From: Oceaniovalibus sp. ACAM 378
GTDB lineage: Bacteria; Pseudomonadota; Alphaproteobacteria; Rhodobacterales; Rhodobacteraceae
Reading direction: 5' to 3'
NCBI RefSeq assembly: GCF_008085915.1
Contig: NZ_VSJK01000001.1
Coordinates: 1 to 64,000 of the forward strand
DNA length: 64,000 nucleotides
The translations under genes and the position numbers were made by a program. Numbering within the stretch: the first letter of the stretch is position 1; each line of letters opens with the position of its first letter. Below the pieces are notes generated by a model, which was given only the letters and a program-made list of their open reading frames with translations, made no database searches and had not been told where the DNA came from. Shown in pieces: positions 2,084 through 30,652 of this stretch.

Positions 2084-2110
2084 GGGGCGTCCTTTCTCGG
2101 TACGTGCGGA

Positions 2111-2959: not shown

Positions 2960-2970
2960 ATGCGCCCTCC

Positions 2971-4949: not shown

Positions 4950-5827
4950 GCCGCCTCTCCGGGGAGCAGTTGATCCAGCCGCGGCGCGAGAAAGGCCATG
5001 TCATCGTGATCCTTGATTGCCACGCCAATCGCACGGCGGAATGCATCGGGCCAGCGCGCGCCCTGGGTGTTCAGCAGCGTCGCCGCCTCGGCCCATTCGA
5101 TTGTCTCGGCCACACCCGGTGGCTTGGCCAAAGGCTCGCCGCGCAGGGCGTTGACCGATGCAACCACTGCATCCGCCGTTGCGCGCGCCACCTGCGATGC
5201 CCGGGCCATGACGATCTCGGCCTCAAGTGCCGGATCGGGATAATCAATCCAGTGATAGACACAGCGCCGGCGCAGCGCCTCGTGCAGATCACGGGTGCGG
5301 TTCGAGGTCAGCACGACAACCGGTGGCTGTGTGGCGCGCACGGTGCCAGTTTCCGGGATCGAGATGGTGAAATCCGACAGGAATTCCAGCAAAAACGCTT
5401 CGAACTCATGATCCGCCCGGTCAATTTCGTCGATCAGTAACAACGAGGTGGCGGGGTTTCTTAAAGCGGTCAGCAGCGGACGTTCCAACAGAAAATCCTC
5501 AGAATACAGATCCACTTGTTCGTCGCCTGCCTGCCGTATCGCCAGCATCTGCCGGGGATAGTTCCATTCATAGAGCGCCGCCGCCGCATCGATGCCCTCA
5601 TAACACTGCAGCCGGATCACCTGCCGCCCCAGAACCCCACCCAGAGCCTTGGCCGCCTCGGTCTTGCCAACACCCGGCGCGCCCTCAAGCAGCATCGGCT
5701 TGCCCAGTGCCAGCGCCAGATAACTGGCCGTGGCCAGGGCATCGTCGGCCAGATACTGCGCGTCGATCAGGGCGCGCTGCAACGCATCGGGGCTTCCGAG
5801 CCCGGCAATGTTGGGGCGGACTGCCAT
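4946..5827 (-). CDS. MoxR-family AAA ATPase, CoxD-like
   Basis: This is a 293-residue AAA+ ATPase of the MoxR branch. The Walker A loop GAPGVGKTE is at 49-57, Walker B LLLIDEID at about 129-136, and the sensor TSNRTRDL follows. In CO-dehydrogenase and related clusters CoxD remodels or loads the molybdenum site together with the VWA partner CoxE, which follows here with an ATGA overlap. Its ATG abuts the TAA stop of the preceding molybdopterin subunit with no gap, so it belongs to the same transcript. The assignment as maturation ATPase for this hydroxylase is inference from context. Confidence 0.9.
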   Translation of the reverse strand: MAVRPNIAGLGSPDALQRALIDAQYLADDALATASYLALALGKPMLLEGAPGVGKTEAAKALGGVLGRQVIRLQCYEGIDAAAALYEWNYPRQMLAIRQAGDEQVDLYSEDFLLERPLLTALRNPATSLLLIDEIDRADHEFEAFLLEFLSDFTISIPETGTVRATQPPVVVLTSNRTRDLHEALRRRCVYHWIDYPDPALEAEIVMARASQVARATADAVVASVNALRGEPLAKPPGVAETIEWAEAATLLNTQGARWPDAFRRAIGVAIKDHDDMAFLAPRLDQLLPGEAA

Positions 5828-6892
5828 TTAGCGCTGACCCTGTGGCATACTGCCGCCCTGCGTCGCGCCATTATTGCCACCCTGCGGGCGGGCTCCGCCG
5901 TTCGCCTGCAACCCGCGCAACACCTTTTCCGGCGTGATCGGCAACCGGTCGCACCGCACACCAACGGCGTTATAGATCGCATTGGCGATGGCGGGCAGAA
6001 CCGGATTGGCGCACATTTCGCCCGGCCCCTTGCCACCGAATGGCGCGTCCTCGGCCGGGCGTTCCAGCACCGCGATATGGTGCGGCACGATCTGGCCGGG
6101 TCCGGGCATCAGGTAGGTGTTGAAATCCTCGGGCCCGTGCGAGCGGTCGGGGTAATAGGGTTCGGTGGTTTCATAAAGCGCGTGGGAAACGCCCATCCAC
6201 GCCCCGCCGATCAACTGTTGTTCCACCAGCCTCGGGTTCAGCGCCCGACCGACCTCATAAGCCGAATTGATCTCGGTCACCTCAACCTCGCCGGTTTCGT
6301 CATCAACGATCACGTCGATCACCAATGCCGCATGGGCGAAACAGGTCACCGGGGTCATTTCTCCGGTATCGGGATCCGCATCGGACGGGGGGATCAGGAA
6401 AATACCGCGCCCCGACAGCGTGCGCCCTTGCTTGAATTGCGCAGCAGTGGCTGTGTCGGCCACGGTGATACTGCGGCTTGGCGCGCCCTTGACGTGGATA
6501 TTCCCACGCCCGTCGGTGGTCAGATCGGCGGCGTTGACCTCCAATTCGTCAGCCGCCGCCTCCATCATCTGTTTGCGCGCCTCGGCGCTGGCGCGGATCA
6601 CTGCGTTGCCGACCCGGTGGGTCCCGCGCGAGGCGAAAGACCCCATATCATGCGGGCCGGTGTCGCTGTCGGCGGTATCGACATAGACATCTTCGACCGG
6701 CACACCCAGAGTTTCGGCGGCGATCTGGCGGGTGACCGATTTCATCCCCTGCCCCAGATCGATCGCCGACAGAGCGACCATGAATTTACCGTCGGGCGTG
6801 GAATGGACCAACGCCTGTGCCGGATCACCGCCAAGGTTCATGCCGATGGGATAGTTGATACAGGCGAAACCGCGCCCCCGGTGAATGGCCAT
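5828..6892 (-). CDS. Molybdenum hydroxylase large subunit, C-terminal half as separate protein
   Basis: This 354-residue protein corresponds to the second half of a xanthine-dehydrogenase-family molybdopterin subunit. It begins MAIHRGRGFACINYPIG, the block that normally follows mid-protein. It then carries DLGQGM (about 45-50), ASRGTHRVGNA, and near the end GPGEMCANPVLPAIANA with the conserved catalytic Glu292. The N-terminal half is the preceding gene. Stop and start are one base apart (TGA G ATG), and a GGAG ribosome-binding site stands eight bases before this ATG, so the break looks like a real start rather than a sequencing slip. The C-terminus ends in a short Gly/Asn/Gln-rich tail. The two chains must associate to make one active site. 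Confidence 0.85.
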   Translation of the reverse strand: MAIHRGRGFACINYPIGMNLGGDPAQALVHSTPDGKFMVALSAIDLGQGMKSVTRQIAAETLGVPVEDVYVDTADSDTGPHDMGSFASRGTHRVGNAVIRASAEARKQMMEAAADELEVNAADLTTDGRGNIHVKGAPSRSITVADTATAAQFKQGRTLSGRGIFLIPPSDADPDTGEMTPVTCFAHAALVIDVIVDDETGEVEVTEINSAYEVGRALNPRLVEQQLIGGAWMGVSHALYETTEPYYPDRSHGPEDFNTYLMPGPGQIVPHHIAVLERPAEDAPFGGKGPGEMCANPVLPAIANAIYNAVGVRCDRLPITPEKVLRGLQANGGARPQGGNNGATQGGSMPQGQR

Positions 6893-6893
6893 C

Positions 6894-8816
6894 TCAGCGT
6901 CTCCGCGTGCCGGACAGGAAGGGTGAGGTGCCGGGTTTGCGCACCCCCCTGCTGAACGGACGATCAGGTTGATAGGGTTTTTCGGCGGGTGGCGCGGCCT
7001 GCGGTGACGCAGGCGGTGTCGGTGCGGCAGGCGGTGGCGCATAGGCGGATGGCGCCGCCTGCTGTGACGGTGGCGCATAGGCGGGTGGCGCAGCCCGTGA
7101 CGCTGCAACAGGAGCAGCCTGCGGGGGTGCTGCGGGCCTTGGTGGCACGATGTCGGCACCTGTCCTTTGCGGCGCAATCGCTTGGCGCGCATAGGTCGGC
7201 GCAGGACTGGCTACCGGTGCGCCGTGGCTGGCCGCGATGGCGTGGCCGATCCTGTCGACCTCGATTTGCATGTCCTCATTCTGGACCGGGACGGCGACAA
7301 CCGCCTGGCCCGCCTGCCCGGCTGCCACCCGTCCAGTCGGTCGTTTCGACGGCGCGGTGTCAGGCGCGCGGCCTGCACGGCGCTCGCCAATCCGGCCTTC
7401 TTCGTCCGTCGCGGTTTCGGGGATCAGCGCACGGTCACCCTGCCCGCCCCCAAGCGATGTCATCGCGGCCAGATCCGCCGACAACGGCCAACCTGCCTTT
7501 CCCGCTGCCACCTGACAGCACTCGATCAAAGCGGTGTTCTTTGCCACCCGCCGGTGCGCCTTCATGTCGCCGTCACGGTATGCGTTCTTCAGCCGCAGCG
7601 CGATGGGGTCGACTCCGGTCACTTCGGACACCCGGTCCATGTGGCATTCAATGGCGAAATCGGCGGCAGTGATGCCAAAGCCCCGCATCGCCGTAGCGGG
7701 TGTGCGGTTTGTCACGACGCAAAAGACGTTGGCGGCAATATTCGGGATCGAATAGGGCCCCGGCAGATGCCCTGCCGCCTTGATGATCGCATAGGGCGAC
7801 AGCCGCATATAGGCGCCTGAATCGAAGAACCCGGTGAATTCGCGGGCAATGATCGAGCCGTCGGCCATTACCCCGTCCTTGATCCGCCAGCGTTCACCGC
7901 CGCGCGGTGCGCCGACCTGCATTTCCTCGTAACGGTCCCAGGTAAAACGCACCGGTCGTCCGGTCAGAACGGCACCCAGAACGGCGGTAGGTTCGACGAT
8001 GGAATCCACTTTGCCGCCAAATCCGCCCCCCGACGTTCCGCCGATGAAATGCAGCCGCGACGACGCCATATCCAGCAGCTTGGCCGTGGTGCCCAGCGAA
8101 AAGAACAGCGCCTGCGTGTTGGTATGGCAGACATAGCGGCCATTCTGTTCGGGAGCGGCAATCGCGCCGCAAGTCTCGATCGGCGCCTGTTCAATCGGCG
8201 ACATCTGATACTCGGCCTCGACAATGTGATCGGCGCGGGCAAAGGCGGCATTCACATCGCCAAAGCGCAGCTTTTGATGATCGTACTTGCCGTGATAATC
8301 GAAGGTGTTGTTGGGATAGACTTCGTTCACCAGGGGCGCGCCAGGCTTCAGCGCCTCCTCGACATCCAAAACATGCGGCAGCGGATCATAATCCACCCGC
8401 ACCTGCGCCACCGCATCGCGCGCCTGCCGTTCAGTGTCGGCGATGATCCAGGCGACAGTCTCCCCCAGAAACCGCACCTTGTCATGGGCACACAGCGGTT
8501 CATCATCGCGACCGAAATTGATCAGCGACAGCAGCGTGTTCAAGTTCACCGGCACATCGCGGGCCGTCACCACACGCCGCACACCGGGCATAACGGCAGC
8601 GCGAGAGGTGTCGATATTGCGGATGCGGGCGTGGTGATGCGGCGAGCGGACCGCGCGCATGTGCAGCAACCCGTCAAACAGATGGTCGTCGAAATACGGC
8701 GTGCGCCCGGTGACATGGCCCAGAATATCCTGCCGTATCGTCGGCTTGCCGATTTCGTGCAGTGTGTCGTCACGTTCGTCGGCGAACAGATCCTTGCGGA
8801 ATTCGACGGTGGTCAT
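6894..8816 (-). CDS. Molybdenum hydroxylase large subunit, N-terminal half with disordered tail
   Basis: This is a 640-residue protein. Residues 1-440 match the first half of a xanthine-dehydrogenase/CO-dehydrogenase-type large subunit, with the molybdopterin-contact motif GGGFGG (263-268) and the active-site loop AMRGFG (376-381). That loop is of the xanthine-dehydrogenase type, not the AYxCSFR loop of true form I CO dehydrogenase. After about residue 455 the domain stops and a Pro/Ala-rich low-complexity tail runs to residue 640. The missing half is the next gene. The start was set at the ATG that overlaps the small-subunit stop (ATGA). A longer in-frame extension upstream exists but would run into the small subunit. 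The substrate is unknown. Confidence 0.87.
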   Translation of the reverse strand: MTTVEFRKDLFADERDDTLHEIGKPTIRQDILGHVTGRTPYFDDHLFDGLLHMRAVRSPHHHARIRNIDTSRAAVMPGVRRVVTARDVPVNLNTLLSLINFGRDDEPLCAHDKVRFLGETVAWIIADTERQARDAVAQVRVDYDPLPHVLDVEEALKPGAPLVNEVYPNNTFDYHGKYDHQKLRFGDVNAAFARADHIVEAEYQMSPIEQAPIETCGAIAAPEQNGRYVCHTNTQALFFSLGTTAKLLDMASSRLHFIGGTSGGGFGGKVDSIVEPTAVLGAVLTGRPVRFTWDRYEEMQVGAPRGGERWRIKDGVMADGSIIAREFTGFFDSGAYMRLSPYAIIKAAGHLPGPYSIPNIAANVFCVVTNRTPATAMRGFGITAADFAIECHMDRVSEVTGVDPIALRLKNAYRDGDMKAHRRVAKNTALIECCQVAAGKAGWPLSADLAAMTSLGGGQGDRALIPETATDEEGRIGERRAGRAPDTAPSKRPTGRVAAGQAGQAVVAVPVQNEDMQIEVDRIGHAIAASHGAPVASPAPTYARQAIAPQRTGADIVPPRPAAPPQAAPVAASRAAPPAYAPPSQQAAPSAYAPPPAAPTPPASPQAAPPAEKPYQPDRPFSRGVRKPGTSPFLSGTRRR

Positions 8817-9295
8817 GCGGTTCTCCCCTGCATCTTTGCCGCCGCCGTCAGGATGGCGTCGACGATGGGTTCGTATCCGGTGCACCGGCACAGATTGCCG
8901 CTGATCGCCTCAATCACCTGATCCCTTGTCGGATTTGGTGTCTGGTCAAGCAGTGCCTTGGCCGACATCAACATACCGGCAGTGCAGAATCCGCATTGCG
9001 CGGCGAACCCCTCCATAAAGGCGGTCTGCAGCGGGTGAAGTTCCGGCCCGACCGCCAGCCCGCCAGTGGTCGAGATACGCCGCCCCTCGGCCATTTCGGC
9101 GAGGGTGAGACAGGACAGATGCGGCACCCCGTCAATCAGCACGGTGCAGGCGCCACAGGCGCCCTGAGCACAGCCCTCTTTTGGCGTCAGATCGCCCGCG
9201 CCCCGGCGCAAGACGTCCAACAGGTTGCTGCCGGGAACTACAAACACCCCGATTTCGGCGTCGTTCAGCGTGAAGGTCAGCGGTACTTTGGCCAT
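8813..9295 (-). CDS. Molybdenum hydroxylase [2Fe-2S] small subunit, CoxS-like
   Basis: This 160-residue protein has both iron-sulfur domains of the family. The plant-type ferredoxin cluster uses Cys42, Cys47, Cys50 and Cys62 (CAQGACGAC and SC). The helical domain cluster uses Cys101, Cys104, Cys136 and Cys138 (CGFC, CRC). It passes electrons from the molybdenum centre to the FAD subunit. The ATG at 9293-9295 shares its A with the stop of the FAD subunit (TGATG) and follows GGAGACAAGG, which decides the start over longer frames. It overlaps the molybdopterin gene by ATGA. Confidence 0.95.
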   Translation of the reverse strand: MAKVPLTFTLNDAEIGVFVVPGSNLLDVLRRGAGDLTPKEGCAQGACGACTVLIDGVPHLSCLTLAEMAEGRRISTTGGLAVGPELHPLQTAFMEGFAAQCGFCTAGMLMSAKALLDQTPNPTRDQVIEAISGNLCRCTGYEPIVDAILTAAAKMQGRTA

Positions 9296-10086
9296 CACCT
9301 TGTCTCCAACAAAAGTCGTTTGAGATGCACCGGCGCGACTGCGCGGCGATACCACGCGGTTGCCAGCGGATCATCGGCGGGTTGCAACCCGTCACAACAT
9401 ACCGCCAAAGCCGCGGCGATCCCCGGCTCGGTCAGGTCGCGCCCGCGCAGCGCCTGTTCCGCCGCCTTCGCCCGCAGCGGAGTCGGCCCCATGGTGCCAA
9501 AGGCAATCCGCGCCTCGTCAATCCGGCCCGAGCCGCGCAGCCACAGGGCAATCGCCATCATCGACGCACCTTTCGGTTTCACGCGGCTGATCTTGGCAAA
9601 GCGGAATTCCCGCTCGGACACCCGTGGCACAGTGACGGCCACCACCAACCCGCGCGCCCGGTCACGCCCCGACAGGAAGCTCTCCATCGGCTGGTTTTGC
9701 CCGTCAGCCATTTGCACCGTTGCATCCAGCGCAAGCAGTGCGGTGGCGAAGTCACCAAAGGGCGCCGCGGCGAACAGATTGCCGCCGACCGTCCCCATGT
9801 TGCGCACCGCCGGACCACCGATGACCCGCGCCACAGGATGGAGAAACCCTGCATCACGCGACGCCAGAACGTCGGCCATCGTCGCCCCCGCGCCGATCCT
9901 CACCCCCTGCCCCTCATTGCGGATGGTTCGGTCGATCTCGCGACTTATCACAATCCGATCAAAGCTTTGATCGCCATAGTTCACAGCCCGCATCAACAGC
10001 GTCCCACCGCCGATATAGCGCGCCCGATCGCCGATCGCCTGCGATGCTTCGCGCAGGGTCGGATATGTCTCAACACTCAAGCTCAT
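9295..10086 (-). CDS. Molybdenum hydroxylase FAD-binding medium subunit, CoxM-like
   Basis: This is a 263-residue protein of the FAD-binding dehydrogenase subunit family. The flavin pyrophosphate motifs RYIGGGTLLM (about 24-33) and NMGTVGGNLFAAAPFGD (about 95-112) are intact, and a CO-dehydrogenase flavoprotein C-terminal domain follows. It re-oxidises the small subunit and passes electrons to an acceptor. The gene order medium-small-large is the common one for CoxMSL-type enzymes. The start overlaps the stop of the upstream SRPBCC gene (ATGA). Confidence 0.94.
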   Translation of the reverse strand: MSLSVETYPTLREASQAIGDRARYIGGGTLLMRAVNYGDQSFDRIVISREIDRTIRNEGQGVRIGAGATMADVLASRDAGFLHPVARVIGGPAVRNMGTVGGNLFAAAPFGDFATALLALDATVQMADGQNQPMESFLSGRDRARGLVVAVTVPRVSEREFRFAKISRVKPKGASMMAIALWLRGSGRIDEARIAFGTMGPTPLRAKAAEQALRGRDLTEPGIAAALAVCCDGLQPADDPLATAWYRRAVAPVHLKRLLLETR

Positions 10087-10529
10087 GCGCCCTCCAGCCC
10101 CATATGCGTGCGGATTGCGTCGAGCCCCGCGGAGTAAATGTTATCGCCCACCATCGCCGCCAGCTCGGCCTCGCGCCCCTTGGGGGTGTCAAAGCGGCTG
10201 CGCCAATCACAGAAGGTGTGATCGCTGTCGGTCACCGGGATCAGCCGCAAATGCGCGACATAGTTCAGCAGCGGAATCGGCGTATCCAGCAGGCAATAAC
10301 TGAAGGTGGTTTCAGCGTCCGAAAGGCTCAGCAATTGCTCGCGCAGCTCCGACCCGTCAGCCAGCCGAAACGCACGCACACATCCGACACGGTCACTGTC
10401 GCGGCCCCGCTCGATGGCGCTTGTTGCCACGGCGGGATGCCAGCGGTCATGGCCGTTAAAATCGCGCACCACATCCCACACCGCCTCAATCGGCGCCGCC
10501 AGAATAGTGCTGCGGATGACGGTGACCAT
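10083..10529 (-). CDS. SRPBCC-family protein (second of a tandem pair)
   Basis: This 148-residue protein of the START/Bet v1-like fold begins MVTVIRSTILAAPIEAVWDVVRDF, the usual first strand and helix of SRPBCC proteins, which bind hydrophobic ligands. It is a diverged paralogue of the gene just upstream: both keep VWxxxRDFN, WHPA/WHPR, DxxGCxRxF and a C-terminal amphipathic helix. CoxG-like members of this fold occur beside molybdenum hydroxylases and may help membrane recruitment. The ATG at 10527-10529 was preferred to one four codons earlier because it follows GGGGG at good spacing and leaves one base after the upstream stop. Confidence 0.85.
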   Translation of the reverse strand: MVTVIRSTILAAPIEAVWDVVRDFNGHDRWHPAVATSAIERGRDSDRVGCVRAFRLADGSELREQLLSLSDAETTFSYCLLDTPIPLLNYVAHLRLIPVTDSDHTFCDWRSRFDTPKGREAELAAMVGDNIYSAGLDAIRTHMGLEGA

Positions 10530-10530
10530 C

Positions 10531-10968
10531 TCAGCCCCCAAAATGCCGTTTCAGCGCGTCGAAACCGCCCTGAAACACATTGGTCCCGATCCCGCTTATC
10601 AGATCGGCTTCATCCTTCGCCTCACACTCGAATTCTGCCGACCATTCGGCAAATGTCCGTAGGCCATCGGTCACGGGGGTCAGTCGAACCGTCGCCATAT
10701 AGTCCCACAGGGGCATTGGGCCCTCAACCATGGAATAGGTGAAGAACGTATCGTAATCACTTAGTCCCAATAACTTTTCACGGATCATATCACCATTCTG
10801 AAGGTGAAAGTTTCGAATGCAGCCGATCTTGTCTCCCGGCAGGGCGTCTTCGATCCGGCTGTCGCGGATGCGCGGGTGCCATTTTGGCATGGCGTTGAAA
10901 TCGCGGATCCTTTCCCAGACGCGCGATGCCTCGGCGGGGATGACGGAACTGATGAAAACACGTGCCAT
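10531..10968 (-). CDS. SRPBCC-family protein (first of a tandem pair)
   Basis: This 145-residue protein begins MARVFISSVIPAEASRVWERI and shows the same fold and motifs as the following gene, so the pair arose by tandem duplication. SRPBCC proteins have a deep hydrophobic pocket for small ligands or lipids. Its ATG directly abuts the TAA stop of the giant flotillin-like gene, and its TGA is one base before the next ATG, so all three are co-translated. I infer a helper role for the downstream hydroxylase or the membrane scaffold. A catalytic role such as a cyclase or dehydratase is also possible. Confidence 0.85.
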   Translation of the reverse strand: MARVFISSVIPAEASRVWERIRDFNAMPKWHPRIRDSRIEDALPGDKIGCIRNFHLQNGDMIREKLLGLSDYDTFFTYSMVEGPMPLWDYMATVRLTPVTDGLRTFAEWSAEFECEAKDEADLISGIGTNVFQGGFDALKRHFGG

Positions 10969-13900
10969 TTACGATTTCTCCCCGGGCTTTTCGCCCGCCG
11001 GTTTTGAGGACTTGGCGCGGGCCATCTCGTTTGCCGCGCGCGTCATGTCCGAGGCATTGCGGAATATGTCGGACTTGCCGATATTCGCACCGTCCAGCCC
11101 GATATCAGCCAGCAAACTGTCGACCATCGGCGCCTGCACACGGTAGCGCAAGGCGCTGTTCATCACCTCGTCCGTCGGGCTTGAACCGCCGCCGCCGCTG
11201 CCGCCCGGCGATCCATCGGCCCAGTTCAGCCCCTGTGTGCCGCTGCCGCCCAGTTGCATGATCCGGATATCGTTGATCTTTTCCAACGGCTTGACGCTGG
11301 CGGCGACGATGCCTTCCACATGCTCGAGCATCTTGCGCTTGAACAGCGAGGTGCGCGCGCCTTCGGTCAGAACGTTCTCGGCCTCGTTGATCAGCTTCTG
11401 CGCCTCGGCCTCGACTGCGCTGCGGATCTTGTCGGCCTCGGCCTTGATGCGGGTCTTTTCCGCCTCCAGTTCGGCCGCTGTCACGCCGACAACCTTGCGA
11501 CGCGACGCCTCTTCACGCTCGCCTGCGGTCTTGACCTTCTCTGCGGCCTCGACGGCGCGGGCGCGGGCATTGTCGGCCTCAATGGCGGCAGCGGATTGAT
11601 CCAGCGACTTCTGATACAGCGCGATGGCTTTTTCCATAATTGCCTCTTCCACGGCCCTTTCGCGGCCGATTTCAAGACGCCGACGCTCGGTCTGGTGGCC
11701 GATGCGGGCATCATCCAGCCCGCGTTCCGACGCGATACGGGCCCGCTCAATCTCTTCCTGACTGGCAATCTCGGCCTCGTTCAAGGCCTGAACCCGAGCG
11801 ATTTCAAGCTGTTCCAGCGCACGGCGGCGCTCCAAACGTCTCGCCTCCAACTCCTGCTCGGCGCCGATCCTTTCGGCGTCTACCGTTTTGGTCTTGGCAA
11901 CCCGGGCGGCCTCGATGGCCTGATCCGCAGCGATCTGGGCAGCATCCAACGCCTGGTTCCGCTGGATCTCCAGATCCCGGATCTTGCGGTCGCGGGCAAT
12001 CTTCTCGATGGTCGTCTCGGACTCTTTCTCGATCCGCTGACCGTCGATCAACCGGCGGGATGAGATTTCAGCCGCCTCGATCGCCTCGTGCTTCTCAATC
12101 TCGCGACTGCGGATTTCAGCGTCACGGGCGATTTCGGCCGCCCGGGTGCGAACGGATTCAGCGATCTTGGCGGCACTGACCACTTCCTGAGCGGTTGTTG
12201 TGGCCACGTCGATGGCGCGGTTGCGGGCAATCTCACGCTCGCGCATGTCTTGTTCATAGGCAATGCGCTCGGCGGCCAGCTTTTTCTCCTTGGCGATGCG
12301 TTTCGCCTCGACCGCTTCCTGTTTGGCGGTTTCAGCAAATGCAACCGCCTGTTCGCGAGCCAGATCGCGCTCTTTCGTGCGTTCTTCGCTTTCAATCCTC
12401 TCGACGGCGGTACGGGCATCGGTGGCGATGCGGGACTTATCCACAGCCTCGCGCGCCGCGATTTCGGCCTGTTCTATGGCCTCGTTGCGCGCGATTTCCA
12501 ATCCACGCACGCGCTGCTCCTGCGCAATCCGTTCCTTGCTGGTCATTTCCGAGGCTTCGATTTCGGCCTTGTCCAACACGCGACGCTGTTCAATTTCCAA
12601 CGCACGAGTGGCCTGCTGGCTTTCGATCCGTTCAGCGGCAAGCATCTTTTCACGGGCGATCCGCGCAGCCTCAATCGCTTGTTCACTTGCGATTTCAGCA
12701 GCTTCAAGCGCTTTCCTGCGTTCGATTTCCAGCGTGCGGGTTTCCCTGTCCGAACTGATGCGCTCGGCGCTGATCGTCCGCTCCTGGGCGATGCGCAGCC
12801 GTTCTGATGCCTCTCGACTGGCGATCTCGGCTTCTTCGATGGCAAGGTTGCGCGCAATCTCCTTCTCTCGGGTGTTGCGTTCTGAATCAATCCGCGCCTC
12901 GGTGATTTCCCGCTCCTGCGCGATCTTGGCTTTTTCGATCACCTCGCGAGCAGAAAGATCGGCCGCTTCGATGATGCGTTTGCGATTGATCTCGCTGCTC
13001 TGGGTTTGCAGATCCTTCTCGATCCGCGCCTCGGTTAAGCTGCGCTCCTGCGCAATACGCGCCTTTTCAATGGATTCGCGGGCGGAAATCTCGGCTGCGT
13101 CGGTGTCGCGGGTGTTGGTGATCCGCGCCTCGGTCAGGGTACGTTCCTGCAGGATGCGCGCCTTTTCGACGACTTCGCGGGTTGAAATCTCGGCCTCGTC
13201 GATCACCCGCTGGCGTTCAATTTCATGCTGTCGGATTTTCCGTTCCGAGGCAATTCGGGCTTCGGCGATCTGCTCTTCGTTTGAGATCCGGGCACGTTCG
13301 ATGGCCTCGCGGCTGAGCAGGGTCGCCTCTTCCCCCTCCTTTTCCCGTTCGCCACGTTCGCGGGCAAGGTCGGCACGCTGCTGGGCGCGACGGAATTCGA
13401 TATCACGCTCTTGATCCAGCCGGGCCGATTCCGATTCACGTTCAATATCAAGGCTCTGCCGCTCGGCTTCAAGGTTGCGCGTGCGGATCTTGATCATCGT
13501 ATCCTGTTCGATGTCATTCCGGAGCTTGCGTCGCCCCTCGATCGCCTCAATCACCGAAGTCAGACCTTCGGCGTCGAACCGATTGGAAGGATTGAAATAT
13601 TCGATATCCGTCTGATCGATATCCAGGATCGCAACGCTTTCCAGTTCCAACCCGTTTTTATCCAACCCCTCCTGCGCATAGGCCAGCACCCGGCGCACAT
13701 ATTCGCCGCGCTGTTCGTGCAGTTCTTCCATCGTCATTTCCGACGCGACCGCGCGCATCGCCGACACGAATTTCCCAGACAATAACTGGTGAATCCGCTC
13801 GGGCTCCAACGTCCGGCGCCCAAGGGTAGAGGCTGCGAGGGTGACCGCCTGCCGCGTCTGCGCCACGCGGACATAGAACGACGCCTCGATGTCCACGCGC

Positions 13901-14172
13901 ATCCGGTCCTTGGTGATCAGCGCACGGTCCTTTTCCCGGGTCACGTTCAGATCGAGCGAATTCATGTTGACCGGCGTGATGTCGTGAATGATCGGCCAGA
14001 CAAAAGCACCGCCGTCGATCACCACCTTTTCCCCCAGGAATCCGGTGCGGACAAAGGCGATTTCCTTGGTCGAGCGGCGATACAGCCAGTTCATCACCCA
14101 ATACAGGATGAAGATGACGATCACCGCCATGATCAGCCACAGGATGAGCTGTCCTATCAATTGTCCGGTCAT
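10969..14172 (-). CDS. Giant flotillin-like SPFH protein with a 561-residue hendecad stalk
   Basis: This 1067-residue protein has one N-terminal membrane helix (about 8-28) and an SPFH/band-7 domain (about 32-215), then a helical region of exceptional regularity. Residues 283-843 divide without a gap into 51 consecutive 11-residue units of the type A-E/R-I-A-x-x-E/R-x-I-E-x. A flotillin-like C-terminal helical part follows (844-960), then a Gly-rich stretch (GGSGGGGSS) and a charged tail. Ordinary flotillins are about half this length. SPFH proteins oligomerise into membrane cages or rafts. This one lies between transporter and hydroxylase genes, so it may scaffold them at the membrane. The ORF boundaries and domains are clear, and the function is inference. 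Confidence 0.9.
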   Translation of the reverse strand: MTGQLIGQLILWLIMAVIVIFILYWVMNWLYRRSTKEIAFVRTGFLGEKVVIDGGAFVWPIIHDITPVNMNSLDLNVTREKDRALITKDRMRVDIEASFYVRVAQTRQAVTLAASTLGRRTLEPERIHQLLSGKFVSAMRAVASEMTMEELHEQRGEYVRRVLAYAQEGLDKNGLELESVAILDIDQTDIEYFNPSNRFDAEGLTSVIEAIEGRRKLRNDIEQDTMIKIRTRNLEAERQSLDIERESESARLDQERDIEFRRAQQRADLARERGEREKEGEEATLLSREAIERARISNEEQIAEARIASERKIRQHEIERQRVIDEAEISTREVVEKARILQERTLTEARITNTRDTDAAEISARESIEKARIAQERSLTEARIEKDLQTQSSEINRKRIIEAADLSAREVIEKAKIAQEREITEARIDSERNTREKEIARNLAIEEAEIASREASERLRIAQERTISAERISSDRETRTLEIERRKALEAAEIASEQAIEAARIAREKMLAAERIESQQATRALEIEQRRVLDKAEIEASEMTSKERIAQEQRVRGLEIARNEAIEQAEIAAREAVDKSRIATDARTAVERIESEERTKERDLAREQAVAFAETAKQEAVEAKRIAKEKKLAAERIAYEQDMREREIARNRAIDVATTTAQEVVSAAKIAESVRTRAAEIARDAEIRSREIEKHEAIEAAEISSRRLIDGQRIEKESETTIEKIARDRKIRDLEIQRNQALDAAQIAADQAIEAARVAKTKTVDAERIGAEQELEARRLERRRALEQLEIARVQALNEAEIASQEEIERARIASERGLDDARIGHQTERRRLEIGRERAVEEAIMEKAIALYQKSLDQSAAAIEADNARARAVEAAEKVKTAGEREEASRRKVVGVTAAELEAEKTRIKAEADKIRSAVEAEAQKLINEAENVLTEGARTSLFKRKMLEHVEGIVAASVKPLEKINDIRIMQLGGSGTQGLNWADGSPGGSGGGGSSPTDEVMNSALRYRVQAPMVDSLLADIGLDGANIGKSDIFRNASDMTRAANEMARAKSSKPAGEKPGEKS
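11644..13326 (-). repeat. 51-unit hendecad coding repeat in the flotillin-like gene
   Basis: Each 33-base unit encodes 11 residues with Ile, Leu or Val mostly at position 3 and a second aliphatic near position 9, for example ARIAQERTLTE-like and AEIASREAIEK-like units. Units usually cycle in sets of four (44 residues): AEI, ARI, ERI/ARI and xEIERxxAIE types. The set shortens to three in a few places, for example near units 5-8 and 24-27. The DNA copies are diverged, so this is an old expansion. An 11-residue period fits three helical turns and predicts a nearly straight coiled coil. Confidence 0.9.
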
Positions 14173-14208: not shown

Positions 14209-15033
14209 CTAGCGGCTGATATTCTTGAATTTTCTAGTTTGTTCAGTAAGTGCTATCTCGGTCGGAAGACGCTCCATCGACGAAGCGCCATAGAACCCGT
14301 GACAGTGCTTCGTGTTCTTCAGGACGTATTCGGCATCTTCGGGCATCGCCACCGGGCCGCCATGTACAAGCACGATAACATCGGGGTTCACCTCCAGTGC
14401 CGCCTTCGCCCAGGCATCGGTCAGTCCCGGCGCCTGCTCCAGCGTCACGCCGGTTTCCGCGCCGATGGACCCGCCGGTCGTCAGGCCCAGATGGACGACG
14501 ATGATATCGGCACCTGCCCCGGCCATCGCGCGGGCGTCATCCTCGCAAAACACGTAAGGCGTTGTCAGCATGTCCTTTTCATGGGCCATGCGGATCATGT
14601 CGACCTCGAGAGAAAAGGACATTCCGGTCTCTTCCAGATTGGCGCGAAACGTCCCGTCAATCAGCCCGACAGTGGGAAAGTTCTGCACCCCCGAAAATCC
14701 CGCGGCCTTGATCTGATCCAGAAACTTGTCCATCAGCCGAAACGGGTCCGAGGCACAGACCCCGGCCAGCACCGGCGTATGTTTGACCACCGGAAGAACC
14801 TCGCCCGCCATTTCCATCACCACGGCGTTCGCGTCACCGTAAGGCATCAGCCCCGCCAGCGATCCGCGCCCGGCCATACGATACCGACCCGAGTTGTAGA
14901 TGACGATCAGGTCGATCCCCCCCGCCTCTTCGCATTTTGCCGACAGGCCGGTCCCGGCGCCGCCACCGACAATGGGTGTGCCCGCGTCGCGCATGGCACG
15001 GAATTTCTTCATAAGTTCGGTGCGGTCATGCAT
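14209..15033 (-). CDS. PEP-hydrolase-family TIM-barrel protein
   Basis: This 274-residue protein belongs to the phosphoenolpyruvate hydrolase-like TIM-barrel family (PF09370 type). Typical segments are [20 protein letters not shown] near the start, then [21 protein letters not shown] and the GASSMERLP end. It usually occurs next to, or fused with, a Tm-1-like UPF0261 protein, and that partner is indeed the upstream gene here, two bases away. The biochemical role of the pair is poorly defined, and lyase or hydrolase activity on a small acid is assumed from the fold. The spacing places it in the Liv transporter transcript. Confidence 0.88.
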
Positions 15034-15035: not shown

Positions 15036-17163
<2,128 letters not shown>

Positions 17164-17171
<8 letters not shown>

Positions 17172-17958
17172 GACCACCCCCAAGATACAGCGCCTGCACT
17201 TCGGGATCTTCCTCGATCTCGGCCGGTTTGCCCTCTTTGAAGATGCGGCCATTGTGCATCATCGTCACCCGGTCGGACACGCGCAGCGCGACATCCATGT
17301 CATGTTCGATGATGATAAATCCCACATGGCCCGGCAGGCCGGTCAGGATATCGACCAGCTCGCGCCGTTCGGTGGGCGACAGCCCTGCCGCGGGTTCATC
17401 GAACAGGATGAAGCGCGGCGCGCCCGACAGGGCCATCGCGATTTCCAACTGCCGCTGCTGACCATAGGACAGATTGCTGACCATCGTGTCACGCACATCA
17501 TCCAGGTGGACAACGCGCACCAGATCCTCGGCCGATTGCATCAAAGCGTCATTGCGGCGGGGACGCAGCAGGGAAAACCGCCCACGCGACACGCCCCGGC
17601 AGGCCAGATAGATATTGTCGATCACAGACAGACCGGTAAACAACAGCGATATCTGATAGGTACGGCGCAACCCCCGGCGAATACGCTCTTGCGCGGGAAA
17701 GCCGGTCACATCCTCGCCGAAGAACCGGATCGAGCCTGTGGTCGGGGGGAAATCGCCGGTGATGCAGTTGAACAGAGTCGTTTTGCCCGCACCGTTGCTG
17801 CCCAGAACCGCGCGCCGCTCGCCCGGCTTGACCGTCATGTCGATGTCGCCCAGAGCCTCAAGCGCGCCGAACATTTTACTGACCCCGCGCAGTTCCAAAG
17901 CATTGGCGGTGCCGGTGGCGGCCATCCTGTCGGAGATATTGGTGGCGGAAACGCTCAT
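17164..17958 (-). CDS. livG: Branched-chain-amino-acid-type ABC transporter ATPase LivG
   Basis: This 264-residue ABC ATPase has P-loop GSNGAGKTT (53-61), signature LSYGQQRQLE, Walker B ILFDEP and the LivG-type extra segment between Walker A and signature. It pairs with LivF to drive uptake through LivH/LivM. The start was set at the ATG overlapping the livM stop (ATGA), preceded by GGGGGCCAGAG. A longer frame upstream reads into livM. The transported solute is unknown and, given the neighbours, need not be an amino acid. Confidence 0.93.
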
Positions 17959-19004
17959 CTCTGGCCCCCGGTCAATGGATCGCGGCGACGGCTTGCCTTG
18001 AGCTTTTCCCACAGGCCGAGCAGGCCGTCGGGTGAAAAGAATACGATGATCAGAAACCCCATCCCGATCAGCAGCTGGAACCGTTCACCCCCAAGCCCAA
18101 GCGCGATCAGCACATCCACCGCAAAAGTCTTGAGCAGTACAAAGATGAAAGCACCGATAAAAGCGCCGATCGGATGACGCAGCCCGCCGATCACCGCGAT
18201 CACCAGAATGTCGATGGCAGACTGGATTCCTACGGTTCCGGGCGAGATCTGCGCCGACTGCCAGGTCAGAAGAATGCCGCCAATTCCGGCAATCACCGCC
18301 GCGAAGGCATAGGCGGCAACCCGGTGTGCCGTCACATTATACCCCAGCGCGGCCATGCGGCGCGGGTTGTCACGAACCCCCTGCAACGCCAGCCCGAACG
18401 GCGCACGCGATACATAAAGCACCGCGCCAAACCCGGTAACGGCCCAGAACATCGTAAGGTAATAGAACGCCTCGGGGCCGCGCCAGTCGATCCCGAACAG
18501 CTCTGGCGGCAGGACCGAGTTGAACCCCTGAAACCCGTTGAACAGCTCATAGTTCTGCCGGGTGAAATAGAAGAACGCTGCCGCGATGGCGAGCGTGATC
18601 ATGATGGTGTAAATACCCTCGGTCCGCACAGCCAGCCAGCCAACCGCGGTAGCAAAGATAACCGTCAGGAACAGCGCAAGCGGGATCACGATCCACCACG
18701 GCCAGCCCTGCGATATGCCGCTGATCGCACTGTCGCCAAAGATCGCGACCATATAGCCCGCAAACCCCGCAAATGCCATTTGTGCCAGCGAAACCATGCC
18801 GCCATAACCGCCGAGAAACATCAGCGACAGCGCGATCAGACCAAGGATGAACGTCCAGCCCATGATCTGGAACATCACGAAATCGCTGGCAAATGCCGGT
18901 ATGATCAGCAGCAGGATGCCAAGCACCCAATAGGCGGGTGGGACGGACGCAATCCGGCGACGCAGGTCCGTGGTCGTGGTGCGAGGAGAGTCGATAGCCA
19001 CCAT
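17955..19004 (-). CDS. livM: Branched-chain-amino-acid-type ABC permease LivM
   Basis: This 349-residue polytopic inner-membrane protein has about nine to ten hydrophobic segments and the LivM hallmark block GLIALSLMFLGGYGGMVSLAQMAFAG (about 70-95), plus a C-terminal GxxRHPIGAFIGA loop that contacts the ATPase. It forms the translocation channel with LivH. The ATG at 19002-19004 is one base after the livH stop. A frame extending 16 codons further would overlap livH and is less likely. Confidence 0.92.
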   Translation of the reverse strand: MVAIDSPRTTTTDLRRRIASVPPAYWVLGILLLIIPAFASDFVMFQIMGWTFILGLIALSLMFLGGYGGMVSLAQMAFAGFAGYMVAIFGDSAISGISQGWPWWIVIPLALFLTVIFATAVGWLAVRTEGIYTIMITLAIAAAFFYFTRQNYELFNGFQGFNSVLPPELFGIDWRGPEAFYYLTMFWAVTGFGAVLYVSRAPFGLALQGVRDNPRRMAALGYNVTAHRVAAYAFAAVIAGIGGILLTWQSAQISPGTVGIQSAIDILVIAVIGGLRHPIGAFIGAFIFVLLKTFAVDVLIALGLGGERFQLLIGMGFLIIVFFSPDGLLGLWEKLKASRRRDPLTGGQR

Positions 19005-19005
19005 A

Positions 19006-20016
19006 TCAGGCGCGCCCCAACAAGCCTTGCGGGCGGAAGGCCAGCACGACAACCATGATCAGAAAAGTCAGCACCACGGCATAGGTGGGGAAATATACCG
19101 ATCCGAATTGTTCGGCCAATCCGATCAGCAATGCGCCGAGAGCCGCTCCGGGGATCGACCCCATGCCACCGACGATCACCACAACGAGGCTTGCGAGAAG
19201 GAACCGGATATCTTCCCCCGGGGCGATGGATTGGAAGGTGCCGCCGACCACGCCGGCGATCCCGGCCAGCCCCGCGCCAAAGGCAAAGACGCCGACAAAC
19301 ACGATCTGAATCCGCGCACCCGTCGCCGACAGCATGTCACGGTCATCGACCCCGGCACGGATCATCATACCGATGCGCGTCTTGTTCAGCGCCAGCCACA
19401 TCGCCACCCCGACGACGACCGAAGCCGCAAAGATCACGATGCGCACCATCGGATACTTCATGAACACCGGTTCGCCCGAAGATTTGACGGCGGTCACGAA
19501 AAATGTGTCCATCGGGCCCGACAACCACTGCGGCGGTGTAATGTTATAAAAATCGCCGCCGAACCCCCAGAGCATCAAGTCAGCCACGACGATGGAAATC
19601 CCGATGGTGACAAGCGTCTGGCGCAAATCCTCGCCCTCCATCCGCCGGAAGACCAGAACTTGCAGCAGGATGCCGAAGAACCCGACGACGACAAAGGCAA
19701 CCGGAAAGGCCAGCAACCAATATCCCGTCGCCTCGGCGGCAAAATATCCGACATAGCCCCCCAGCAGATAGAGCGAGCCATGGGCCAGATTGACATTGCG
19801 CATCAGTCCAAAGATCAGGGTGAACCCGCTGGCCACCAGAAAATACAGCCCGCCCAAGGTGATGCCATTGAACAATGCGTTCAGAAACACCTTTTTGCGG
19901 CCGATCACGTCTTCCAGCCCGTCAGGCCAGACCGCAAAGATCATCCACAGCAGAATCGCCGCGACCACGGCGATAATCGCGGCCCAGACCGGATGGCGGG
20001 TGGCAAAGAGCCTCAT
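19006..20016 (-). CDS. livH: Branched-chain-amino-acid-type ABC permease LivH
   Basis: This 336-residue permease has the LivH block GITLGGLYFLVASGFTLIFG (about 50-70), NLAHGSLYLLGGY and the C-terminal coupling loop GGMGSIPGAALGALLIG. It is about 40 residues longer than many LivH proteins because of an extra N-terminal hydrophobic helix (about 10-30). It is the first main gene of the livHM-G-F/Tm-1 transcript. Its ATG overlaps the stop of a 24-codon reading frame (see 20013-20087), so translation may be coupled. Confidence 0.92.
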   Translation of the reverse strand: MRLFATRHPVWAAIIAVVAAILLWMIFAVWPDGLEDVIGRKKVFLNALFNGITLGGLYFLVASGFTLIFGLMRNVNLAHGSLYLLGGYVGYFAAEATGYWLLAFPVAFVVVGFFGILLQVLVFRRMEGEDLRQTLVTIGISIVVADLMLWGFGGDFYNITPPQWLSGPMDTFFVTAVKSSGEPVFMKYPMVRIVIFAASVVVGVAMWLALNKTRIGMMIRAGVDDRDMLSATGARIQIVFVGVFAFGAGLAGIAGVVGGTFQSIAPGEDIRFLLASLVVVIVGGMGSIPGAALGALLIGLAEQFGSVYFPTYAVVLTFLIMVVVLAFRPQGLLGRA

Positions 20017-20127: not shown

Positions 20128-21027
20128 TTAGATCGACACAGCGCCAACCGGCATACCCGAAAGTCTTTCCGGGTGGCCAATCATCGGAAAAGCGGCGGGC
20201 GAACAATTTGCCACACGCCGGTATTCGCTGGGCGCGATGCCGACGTTGGAGGAAAAGAACCGGGTAAAGCTGGCCTGTGACGAAAACCCCAGATCATGGG
20301 CAATATCGGTGACCGTCTTGTCGGTTGTCAGCAAATCCTCGATCGCCTGTTCGGCCCGTAGCGTGTTGAGATAGATATTCGGCGTGACGCCCATCTGTTG
20401 TTTGAACAGCTTGAAAAAGTGCGGCCGCGACAGGCCCACCGCACGGGCAATCCCTTCGATGTCCAGATCGTCGGTCATCCGATCCTGCATCAGGCGCAGC
20501 GAACGGCGCACCCGAAAATCGCTGGACCGTTGAAAGGCTGGGTTCAGATTGCTCACCGGTGCGCGGGCCCAGGATTGTTCGAAACATTCCCTTGTCAGGG
20601 CAAAAAGCAGGTCGTCGAAGCCCTTGTTGTCCTCATCCTCAAGCATGTGAGCGGTCAGGCGCTTGATCAGATTGCCAATGAAAGGTGTGATCGCGATATC
20701 AGGACGCCCGAATTTCAGCGCGAATTCAGCCGACTCCGAATTCTCAAGAAACCACATCGGCTTGATATACAGGGTCAGGCTCATCACCTCGGCGCCGGGG
20801 TCGATGTCGGCGCCGTCCCAGCTGTGCGGCTCCCACGGGTTGATCGCACAGGCGGTCAGCGCGGTGGCGGGCACTTTCGCATCGGCCACGGTCATCGAAC
20901 CGTCGGCTCCGCCGATGCAGAACACCAGATGACCTTCGCGGTGCGCATGGTTGATTATCGGGCGATCCAACCGATATAGGGTCGCACGCCCGAAGGCTCC
21001 GTGTGACACGGATACCGCATGGCTCAT
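20128..21027 (-). CDS. AraC-family transcriptional regulator
   Basis: This 299-residue regulator has an N-terminal ligand-sensing part rich in aromatic residues (1-180) and a C-terminal AraC/XylS DNA-binding domain. The domain has its two helix-turn-helix units at IARAVGLSRPHFFKLFKQQMG and IAHDLGFSSQASFTRFFSSNVG (about 205-285). The ATG follows GGGAGGACGATAAG. It sits between the aldehyde dehydrogenase and livH on the same strand and is the only regulator in the catabolic cluster, so it probably senses the imported compound and activates the cluster. Confidence 0.92.
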   Translation of the reverse strand: MSHAVSVSHGAFGRATLYRLDRPIINHAHREGHLVFCIGGADGSMTVADAKVPATALTACAINPWEPHSWDGADIDPGAEVMSLTLYIKPMWFLENSESAEFALKFGRPDIAITPFIGNLIKRLTAHMLEDEDNKGFDDLLFALTRECFEQSWARAPVSNLNPAFQRSSDFRVRRSLRLMQDRMTDDLDIEGIARAVGLSRPHFFKLFKQQMGVTPNIYLNTLRAEQAIEDLLTTDKTVTDIAHDLGFSSQASFTRFFSSNVGIAPSEYRRVANCSPAAFPMIGHPERLSGMPVGAVSI

Positions 21028-22607: not shown

Positions 22608-22704
22608 GGTGTTTCCTTCGGCAACCGCTGCACCGCATTCCAATCCAGCCGCGTAAGGGACGGAAGACCAGCGGCAGGTCGCCAAGCTTTTGAGATAAAA
22701 TACA

Positions 22705-24015: not shown

Positions 24016-24398
24016 TGCAATTCCTCCCATATGAGGCGCCCGCGTTCGTCGCGCCGGGACGCGGCCCCATGGTGGGGTAAGCGGGCGGCTGAACTGATCT
24101 CTGACAGTGCGCCGGCGTAACCCTCAGTCTGTTTTTCGGCTTTCGGGTCGCCTGCCCGGTGCCCGGCCCAGATTGTGCTAAAGCTCACCTGCCCGATTAT
24201 TCCGGACGCGCTGCCCCTGCGCTCCGCGCGTTCGGCGCTGAAATCCGTCCACTGGACGGCTTTCCGGGCGCGCTGCCCCGGCGCTCCGCGCGTTCGGCGC
24301 TGAAATCCGTCCACTGGACGGCTTTCCGGGCGCGCTGCCCCGGCGCTCCGCGCGTTCGGCGCTGAAATCCGTCCACTGGACGGCTTTCCGGGCGCGCC
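24016..24398. other. 383-base gene-free region between phoB and the binding-protein gene
   Basis: No gene is supported here. The region holds the start-proximal leader of the binding-protein gene (24016-24060), a possible promoter zone around 24120-24200 that I cannot pin down, and a three-copy 62-base tandem repeat (24208-24393) directly after phoB. Open frames through the repeats are artefacts of their periodicity and high GC. Confidence 0.6.
24208..24393. repeat. Three tandem copies of a 62-bp hairpin-containing repeat
   Basis: Copies begin at 24208, 24270 and 24332 and are identical except for one base in the first (CCCCTGCGCT versus CCCCGGCGCT). Each holds a dyad CCGTCCA-C-TGGACGG and the GC-rich block GGCGCTCCGCGCGTTCGGCG. 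The array starts within ten bases of the phoB stop codon, so on the minus strand it yields three successive hairpins at the 3' end of the pho transcript. The near-identity of copies indicates recent expansion. It may act as a transcription end or mRNA-stability element, similar to REP sequences. Confidence 0.85.
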
Positions 24399-25088: not shown

Positions 25089-25092
25089 CCGC

Positions 25093-25806: not shown

Positions 25807-25815
25807 GATGTCTCC

Positions 25816-26613: not shown

Positions 26614-26624
26614 GGCAAGCCCGC

Positions 26625-29425: not shown

Positions 29426-29469
29426 GTTGTCTCCCGGATTGGAAATGCGGGACCGACGCGTATTGCGCC

Positions 29470-30529: not shown

Positions 30530-30608
30530 GGAAAGCTCCTGTCATGCGGTTCGGACCGTGCAGTCACGATCCATGCGTCGGGGTCTAGGCGCGCTGTGCT
30601 GACCTTTT

Positions 30609-30637: not shown

Positions 30638-30652
30638 ATGACCGGAATGCCG

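What the first reader, a model, noticed from the sequence alone, without database searches (positions are those of the whole stretch)
10969..14172. Flotillin-like protein with 51 gap-free hendecads
Residues 283-843 of this 1067-residue SPFH protein split exactly into 51 consecutive 11-residue units with no insertion or deletion, mostly grouped in fours (44-residue super-repeat). Usual flotillins have short heptad-like EA repeats. An 11-residue period predicts a nearly straight helical rod of about 80 nm if continuous (561 residues at 1.5 angstrom each). A membrane-anchored rod of this size encoded inside a catabolic operon, directly abutting SRPBCC and molybdenum-hydroxylase genes, suggests a physical scaffold for a transport-enzyme assembly.
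Basis: partly seen in the sequence, partly recalled or inferred. Interest (0 to 1): 0.78.

Follow-up and report, generated by a model that had tools for sequence, protein, structure and literature searches.

The report
Giant-walled flotillin in catabolic operon
A bacterial membrane protein of the flotillin family carries a helical segment several times longer than in its ordinary relatives, built of whole 11-residue units, and it travels with a nutrient importer and usually an oxidising enzyme, which suggests an unusually large protein cage on the cell membrane.

Summary
The repeat is real. The gene is on the minus strand (1067 aa). Residues 283-843 are 51 gap-free hendecads; the in-register run is 244-844. 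The protein is a true flotillin: Band_7 and Flot domains over Pfam cut-off; flotillin cages are the best PDB fold match of its N-terminus.

The hendecads are an expansion. Fifteen of 20 other flotillins have about 5-8 units at this place; long operon-linked ones about 38-71. Between fixed anchors, 118 of 122 rows are 0 or 3 mod 11, and 44,541 repeat residues hold no proline. I read the segment as the wall of a flotillin-type cage, not a free rod; no assembly was modelled.

The operon link is strong: Liv importer, LivF-UPF0261 fusion, PEP_hydrolase, flotillin, SRPBCC proteins, usually a molybdenum hydroxylase, whose split large subunit ends in a conserved peptide in 61 of 61 complete copies. 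Shorter-walled versions carry a zinc dehydrogenase, fused to SRPBCC where checked. One giant (L202) lacks the Mo enzyme.

That the cage exists and holds importer and enzymes is inference.

The parts
10969..14172 (-). giant flotillin (SPFH) gene, 1067 aa
14083..14148 (-). likely N-terminal transmembrane helix, residues about 9-30, followed by RRSTK (suggests a cytoplasmic SPFH domain)
   Evidence: sequence; positive-inside rule (recalled); no TM predictor run
13594..14052 (-). SPFH / Band_7 domain, residues 41-193
   Evidence: AF2 model of residues 1-300, mean pLDDT 82; fold match to flotillin complexes
11641..13443 (-). uninterrupted hendecad run, residues 244-844 (54.6 units); proposed wall helix
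11095..11478 (-). Flot C-terminal domain PF15975, residues 899-1026; proposed cap
22756..24030 (-). LivK-type periplasmic binding protein (Peripla_BP_6)
21177..22685 (-). aldehyde dehydrogenase (on the same strand in 34 of 82 type A rows)
20128..21027 (-). AraC-family regulator
19006..20016 (-). LivH-type permease (named by resemblance; not scanned by Pfam)
17955..19052 (-). LivM-type permease (named by resemblance; not scanned by Pfam)
17164..18012 (-). LivG-type ATPase (named by resemblance; not scanned by Pfam)
15036..17252 (-). LivF-type ATPase fused to UPF0261 (Tm-1-like) domains
14209..15033 (-). PEP_hydrolase family protein (PF09370)
10531..10968 (-). SRPBCC protein 2 (Polyketide_cyc2), immediately downstream of the flotillin
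10083..10541 (-). SRPBCC protein 1 (Polyketide_cyc2)
9295..10086 (-). Mo-hydroxylase FAD subunit
8813..9286 (-). Mo-hydroxylase 2Fe-2S subunit (listed ORF starts at 9355; start chosen here)
6894..8891 (-). Mo-hydroxylase large subunit, N-half (MoCoBD_1), with Pro-rich C-terminal tail
6894..6962 (-). conserved C-terminal peptide of that subunit (possible docking peptide)
5828..7192 (-). Mo-hydroxylase large subunit, C-half (MoCoBD_2); true start is probably inside the listed ORF
4946..5827 (-). MoxR-type AAA ATPase
3843..4949 (-). CoxE-type VWA protein

Best explanation
This is a flotillin whose wall helix was lengthened about seven- to eleven-fold between fixed anchors (593 residues against 54-87 in most other flotillins) by adding whole 11-residue units. 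Shown: the domains, the phase-locked run, the length ladder and the operon. Inferred: many copies stand side by side on the inner membrane, SPFH domains at the base and Flot domains at the cap, forming a tall barrel or dome of the kind solved for flotillin, stomatin, prohibitin and HflK/C. Inferred: the cage sits around or beside the Liv importer, whose LivF ATPase is fused to a UPF0261 domain. The downstream oxidoreductase is held at the same place through the SRPBCC proteins and, in the Mo version, by a flexible tail ending in a conserved peptide. Imported substrate would then be oxidised where it enters. My confidences: hendecad-expanded flotillin wall 0.9; multimeric cage 0.75; spatial coupling of importer and enzyme 0.4.
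For: Band_7 67.9 bits (cut-off 23.6) and Flot 116.7 bits (cut-off 27). Foldseek of the AF2 model of residues 1-300 ranks flotillin complexes 9l3g and 9bq2 first (E 2.4e-9, 7.1e-9). Phase-locked hendecads. Span between fixed anchors: 76 of 76 long rows, window included, are 0 or 3 mod 11, 26 of 26 further rows (counted), and 16 of 20 other flotillins are class 0. Zero Pro in 44,541 residues of runs of at least 61 residues in the 76 rows. Two large-aliphatic stripes, phase 3 (94%) and phase 9 (73%), 131/229 degrees apart, suit a helix with two neighbours. Operon order: PEP_hydrolase directly upstream in 77 of 79 type A rows with at least 1 kb there, SRPBCC2 directly downstream in 78 of 78 with at least 0.5 kb, Mo module in 57 of 58 with at least 9 kb. 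Conserved terminal peptide in 61 of 61 complete Mo N-half subunits. In shorter-walled operons a zinc dehydrogenase is present in 7 of 9 and is fused to SRPBCC1 where checked. Precedents: the flotillin wall is a 44-helix barrel (PMC11260169); stomatin domes surround AQP1 and UT-B (PMC12407830).
Against: No oligomer was modelled or seen. AF2 of the full chain is weak (mean pLDDT 60.6) and breaks the helix at 365-380, 571-581 and 718-721. The fold matches have low TM-scores (0.41 and 0.40 by query) and large rmsd (9.8, 14.2), so they support domain identity, not assembly. The human flotillin wall, the structural template, does not show an 11-residue period (top period 2.22-2.23). One giant (L202) sits in a Liv-SRPBCC operon without Mo hydroxylase or PEP_hydrolase, so length is not strictly tied to the Mo enzyme. 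A lengthened hendecad wall also occurs outside the operon (L036, 728 aa). Four of 20 other flotillins are off the ladder. Nothing here shows the enzymes inside or on the cage; the peptide could bind the other half-subunit, the maturation proteins or lipid.
Confidence: 0.5

Rival explanations
1. A generic giant flotillin microdomain organiser: it forms a large cage, but the operon link reflects co-regulation only (membrane or redox stress during catabolism), with no capture of importer or enzymes.
For: Flotillins are discussed as cages and clustering factors with many clients (PMC11260169 section 11). Other flotillins have unrelated neighbours: none of the operon genes on the same strand at the thresholds used in 20 of 20 type C loci, though L043, L044 and L045 have weaker Liv-type and (L043, L045) ALDH matches on the flotillin's strand.
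Against: Direct adjacency to PEP_hydrolase and SRPBCC2 is kept widely (77 of 79; 78 of 78), and the oxidoreductase carries a tether-like tail or an SRPBCC fusion. This is tighter than co-regulation needs, but does not exclude it.
Confidence: 0.3
2. A thin coiled-coil rod or tether (dimer to tetramer) about 90-110 nm long that spaces the membrane from a cytoplasmic partner.
For: Hendecads give nearly straight, slightly right-handed coiled coils (recalled). The helix length at 1.5 A per residue is 90 nm for 601 residues and 109 nm for 729.
Against: Two separate aliphatic stripes rather than one core; solved SPFH relatives assemble into rings or domes (16-fold pseudo-symmetry for stomatin, 22, 24, 26 and 44 subunits for others).
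Confidence: 0.12
3. A lipid-binding 11-residue amphipathic helix (as in apolipoproteins, perilipins, synuclein; recalled) lying along a membrane or lipid granule.
For: 11-residue repeats are typical of such helices (recalled).
Against: The broad weakly polar face is Ala with 14-27% Asp/Glu at phases 11, 4, 8 and 1, and the large residues sit at its edges; a lipid-binding face would have large residues in the centre (recalled). The run keeps its phase between the two end domains.
Confidence: 0.05
4. Neutral repeat growth: the wall lengthens and shrinks by tandem duplication with no function for the length.
For: Length varies between relatives (879-1261 aa among 71 complete giants), and near-identical internal DNA repeats exist (up to 95.5% over 66 nt in L092).
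Against: All 100 operon-linked rows (window included) stay on the ladder, with one shared 3-residue shift, and no proline enters the runs. In the tree the giants form one side of a branch with no short member (SH-aLRT 85, not starred). Constraint on phase is supported; constraint on total length is not shown.
Confidence: 0.15

Closest known systems
Human flotillin-1/2 cage (9bq2, 9l3g; PMC11260169)
   Same: SPFH domain, long wall helix, capped C-terminus; best fold match of the N-terminal model
   Different: Wall 186 aa against 601 (hendecad run) to 729 (AF2 helix) here; no 11-residue period in human flotillin-1. It is built of two paralogues; here one gene is in the operon, and a partner among the other SPFH proteins of the genome (6 Band_7 matches in all) is not excluded
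Other bacterial flotillins (20 type C rows, 482-938 aa)
   Same: Same family by N-terminal match; in most, hendecads start near residue 245; same length ladder in 16 of 20
   Different: 15 of 20 have only about 5-8 hendecads, and none has the operon at the thresholds used
Bacillus-type FloT (NCBIfam NF058507)
   Same: Weak match over residues 31-398
   Different: 28.5 bits against a cut-off of 700
Stomatin dome around AQP1 and UT-B (PMC12407830)
   Same: Proposed mode of action: an SPFH dome around a transporter
   Different: 16-fold pseudo-symmetry, eukaryotic; partners are channels or transporters, no enzyme described in the section read
Major vault protein
   Same: SPFH-type domain in a very large barrel; appears in the fold search
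   Different: No membrane anchor of this kind (recalled), other domains; far weaker match

Membership tests
SPFH superfamily / flotillin | Band_7 domain over Pfam cut-off | tested here: met
   67.9 bits against 23.6
SPFH superfamily / flotillin | Flotillin C-terminal domain PF15975 | tested here: met
   116.7 bits against 27
SPFH superfamily / flotillin | N-terminal membrane anchor | tested here: inconclusive
   hydrophobic segment about residues 9-30 by reading the sequence; no TM predictor was run
SPFH superfamily / flotillin | Ring or cage assembly | not testable with these tools
   only single chains can be predicted; full-length model mean pLDDT 60.6
FloT (NCBIfam NF058507) | score over curated cut-off | tested here: not met
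   28.5 bits against 700
SPFH2 / NfeD operon type (PMC2636767) | NfeD gene beside the flotillin | tested here: not met
   direct neighbours are PEP_hydrolase and SRPBCC; the rest of the genome was not searched for NfeD
classical heptad coiled coil | hydrophobic period 3.5 (7/2) | tested here: not met
   3.5 is not among the eight strongest periods of the repeat; the three strongest are harmonics of 11. In three other giants the power at 3.5 is 0.3-0.5 against 41-59 at 2.75
bacterial microcompartment or encapsulin | BMC or HK97-type shell gene in the operon | tested here: not met
   no such domain among the operon proteins scanned by Pfam; LivH, LivM, LivG and the 2Fe-2S subunit were not scanned by Pfam
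molybdenum hydroxylase (xanthine dehydrogenase / CO dehydrogenase type) | FAD, 2Fe-2S and MoCo subunits | tested here: met
   of the subunits, both MoCo halves and the 2Fe-2S one were scanned by NCBIfam and none reached a cut-off, so the substrate is not identified

The most novel reading that the evidence does not exclude
A flotillin-walled metabolic compartment: more than 100 giant flotillins form a dome roughly 90-110 nm tall on the inner membrane, enclosing the Liv importer and its tethered oxidation enzymes, with a wall whose length was changed in evolution in 11-residue steps to fit the cargo. It would be a protein organelle unrelated to microcompartments and encapsulins. If the published linear rule (subunits = 0.1782 x CC1 length + 10.22; PMC12624060) held outside its range, a 601-729 aa wall would give about 117-140 subunits.
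Probability: 0.22. Interest if true: 0.92.

Novelty: new variant of a known kind. Interest (0 to 1): 0.64.

Why it matters
The SPFH proteins compared in the flotillin cryo-EM paper have wall helices of 44-189 aa (PMC11260169 section 10), and a later paper fits subunit number to wall length by a straight line (PMC12624060 section 12). Here is a natural series from 54 to 783 residues between fixed anchors, nearly all on an 11-residue ladder, which makes that rule directly testable far outside its range. It also ties a bacterial flotillin to a defined importer and enzyme set, so the question of what a bacterial flotillin holds can be asked with named candidates.

Tried and rejected
Heptad reading: 3.5 is not among the strongest periods. 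Lipid-binding 11-mer helix: acidic residues on the Ala face. 44-residue quantisation of length: differences are multiples of 11 or 11n+3, not of 44. Co-variation of wall length with the Mo-subunit linker: Spearman rho 0.32, p 0.012, n 61, confounded by descent, left out of the argument. Hendecads in human flotillin-1: not found. Terminal peptide on other proteins: a stricter pattern run over the ORFs of all loci then held gave, apart from Mo N-half subunits, one unrelated hit in L164 and one in L061 (in loci L047-L121 it found at least one hit in 56 of 75); in the window's genome a DNA pattern matched twice, once at the Mo subunit and once without a stop codon, while the reversed control matched 5 times, so that search alone proves little. 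Full-length AF2: too weak to use beyond 'helical'. Strict link of giant wall and Mo enzyme: rejected because of L202.

L071 was the one type A row with 9 kb downstream and no Mo module. Its Mo genes lie on the same contig and strand but about 13-30 kb upstream of the flotillin, out of order, in two blocks, with the N-half gene split between them, and runs of N lie beside the break points. I read this as mis-ordered assembly rather than real absence; a real rearrangement is not excluded. I repaired nothing.

Literature: searches for flotillin with hendecad (0 papers), Tm-1-like ATP-binding with flotillin, hendecad, coiled coil, right-handed and SPFH, three of four (21 held, 12 listed), flotillin with metabolon terms and two of UPF0261, flotillin, molybdenum hydroxylase, SPFH (226 held, 10 listed) showed no title or abstract on a giant hendecad flotillin or this operon. 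Only openly licensed PMC papers are held. Listings alone were seen for papers not named next. Papers seen: PMC11260169 passages and sections 7, 10, 11; PMC12624060 passages and section 12; PMC12407830 outline, abstract and section 8; PMC13086221, PMC2636767 and PMC6788730 passages only.

Rows dropped: of 75 genome-contig loci, L085, L098, L111 and L120 were left out of length counts because the gene is cut. L031 and L105 hold the same protein, so 76 rows are 75 distinct, the 82 type A rows 81, and 122 rows 121. The tree dropped rows at 97% identity or more (94 kept); it warns of long branches (L046, L044, L037 and others) and does not hold L193-L206.
Full report
Observation. The gene lies on the minus strand at 10969-14172 and encodes 1067 residues. 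Residues 283-843 split into 51 gap-free hendecads. The three strongest Fourier peaks of large hydrophobics are 5.50, 2.75 and 2.20, harmonics of 11, with power up to 71 against a shuffle maximum of 12.7; charge is less regular (top peak 2.585). A phase model trained on the family puts the in-register run at 244-844. Lag 44 is the strongest self-match, but 121 and 165 are close.

Identity. Pfam finds Band_7 at 41-193 and the Flot domain at 899-1026, both over cut-off. AF2 of residues 1-300 (mean pLDDT 82) matches solved flotillin complexes best by E-value, then prohibitin, stomatin, HflK/C and vault protein; the TM-scores by query are at most 0.45 among the 50 listed, so this is domain identity only. 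The full-length AF2 model is weak (mean pLDDT 60.6); it is helical from 203 to 931 with three breaks.

Homologues. A scan of the genome collection gave 164 relatives, of which the best 80, 75 distinct loci, were kept. Of these, 71 are complete and 879-1261 aa long. The record titles kept are mainly Rhodobacteraceae and Rhizobiales, with some Granulosicoccaceae and other bins. In an evenly drawn sample of 289 genomes of the class, the window's own included, 32 had an N-terminal match at E 1e-58 or better; in a phylum sample of 398, 38 at 1e-75 or better.

Length ladder. Measured between two fixed anchors (reference residues 261 and 854), 76 of 76 long rows, window included, are 0 (50) or 3 (26) mod 11 relative to the window. 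All 26 further rows fit: 12 from the class and family samples, 12 operon-linked and 2 other flotillins from the phylum sample (count). Of 20 other flotillins 16 are class 0; the exceptions are L165 and L171 (7), L046 (2) and L044 (8). Together 118 of 122 rows. The first 102 rows hold 34 distinct lengths from 65 to 783; one search adds shorter and intermediate ones, the shortest 54. Class 3 goes with a single register shift roughly 90-120 residues before the end of the run. I chose the two classes after seeing the data, and rows are related, so the probability printed is only illustrative.

Helix. Runs of at least 61 residues in the 76 rows contain 0 Pro and 0.76% Gly in 44,541 residues, against 2.0% Pro and 5.4% Gly in the N-terminal part. 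At 3.667 residues per turn, large aliphatics occupy phase 3 (94%) and phase 9 (73%), 131 degrees apart across a charged side and 229 degrees across an Ala-rich but partly acidic side. This suits a helix touching a neighbour on each side. The best internal DNA repeat lies at a multiple of 33 nt in 75 of 76 genes, with identity up to 95.5% over 66 nt, so lengthening is most simply by tandem duplication.

Origin. Fifteen of 20 other flotillins have spans of 54-87 residues, about 5-8 hendecads, at the same place (phase runs, none found in three rows and a short or displaced one in a few). In a quick tree of 94 N-terminal sequences the giants form one side of a branch (SH-aLRT 85, not starred), and shorter operon-linked flotillins branch next to and below them; the tree carries long-branch warnings and lacks L202. 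One main expansion followed by many length changes on the ladder is the simplest reading.

Operon. In 82 type A rows (81 distinct) the gene directly upstream is PEP_hydrolase in 77 of 79 with at least 1 kb there (misses L095, without a match, and L109, not within 400 nt), and SRPBCC2 is directly downstream in 78 of 78 with at least 0.5 kb. The Mo module (FAD, FeS, both MoCo halves) is present in 57 of 58 with at least 9 kb downstream; in the miss, L071, these genes lie out of order upstream on the same contig beside runs of N. Of ten further giants fetched from the phylum sample, nine (L193-L201) have the Mo module. The tenth, L202, is a counterexample: a 960-aa giant with Liv genes, a LivF fusion with weak UPF0261_C similarity (23.9 bits, cut-off 27), two SRPBCC proteins, Fe-ADH, ALDH and a protein resembling the window's metallo-beta-lactamase-fold one, but no Mo enzyme or PEP_hydrolase match in the piece fetched. 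Nine shorter-walled operons (529-690 aa) have a PEP_hydrolase match in 9 of 9 (directly upstream in 8; L161 is the miss) and SRPBCC2 directly downstream in 9 of 9. They have no Mo genes on the same strand at the thresholds used in 9 of 9 (only two have 9 kb downstream in the fetched piece, and L157 has weaker Mo-type matches on the other strand), and a zinc dehydrogenase in 7 of 9. In L156 and L203 Pfam shows the dehydrogenase fused to an SRPBCC domain, and one search places both matches in one ORF in L155, L157, L159 and L162; in L158 and L161 the best SRPBCC1 match fell in another ORF. L203 and L204 (729 and 734 aa) also carry the dehydrogenase match. Twenty other flotillins have none of these genes on their strand at the thresholds used; L043, L044 and L045 have weaker Liv-type matches there, and L043 and L045 also ALDH.

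Tail peptide. The N-half of the Mo large subunit ends in a variable Pro/Ala-rich linker and then a conserved basic peptide (in the window ...SPFLSGTRRR). With a loose pattern it is present in 61 of 61 complete copies among 79 loci (11 cut, 7 without a match), and the tails of L152-L154 and of nine of nine further giants with the Mo module end alike. It resembles a tethered docking peptide; its receptor is unknown.

Mechanism. Shown: an in-phase expansion of the flotillin wall and a nearly fixed operon. Inferred: a cage, by family resemblance; and coupling of importer and enzymes, from the operon, the LivF-UPF0261 and SRPBCC-dehydrogenase fusions and the tail peptide. An SPFH dome around transporters has been reported for stomatin (PMC12407830 abstract and section 8). 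If the published length rule extrapolated, 601-729 residues would mean about 117-140 subunits, but human flotillin shows no hendecads, so this is a prediction to test, not a result.

Verdict.

Noticed in passing
window 5828-8891 (-): The Mo-hydroxylase large subunit is encoded as two ORFs (MoCoBD_1 half and MoCoBD_2 half); separate ORFs also in 57 of 57 genome-contig loci that have both halves. Split large subunits are known elsewhere (recalled).
   Followed up: partly
window 15036-17252 (-): LivF ATPase fused to UPF0261 (Tm-1-like) domains: an ABC transporter ATPase joined to a putative enzyme; one long ORF with both matches also in other loci, such as L071.
   Followed up: partly
L046 8893-11760: Another long flotillin (938 aa) with a different repeat (lag about 29 by eye, top hydrophobic period 2.22), off the hendecad ladder; perhaps an independent wall elongation. 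Human flotillin-1 shows a similar 2.23 period.
   Followed up: no
L036 9273-11537: A 728-aa flotillin with hendecads and span 252 (class 0) outside this operon.
   Followed up: no
L165 and L171: Two flotillins with span 182 that share a different register class (7), possibly a second ladder.
   Followed up: no
L071 and L207 (G325:C12): In the Labrenzia sp. DG1229 record the operon is in three blocks out of order on one contig, bounded by runs of N; probably scaffold misordering.
   Followed up: partly
L043, L044, L045: Ordinary-length flotillins with weaker Liv-type ABC genes on the same strand nearby (ALDH also in L043 and L045), perhaps a looser form of the same importer-flotillin pairing.
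   Followed up: no
window 479-3846 (-): Downstream of CoxE: Amidohydro_2, a metallo-beta-lactamase-fold protein and an SMP-30/isochorismatase fusion; together with ALDH this may be a lactone-forming catabolic route, substrate unknown.
   Followed up: partly
window 24399-31699 (-): Ordinary phosphate (pst/pho-type) gene cluster beside the operon, named by resemblance only.
   Followed up: no
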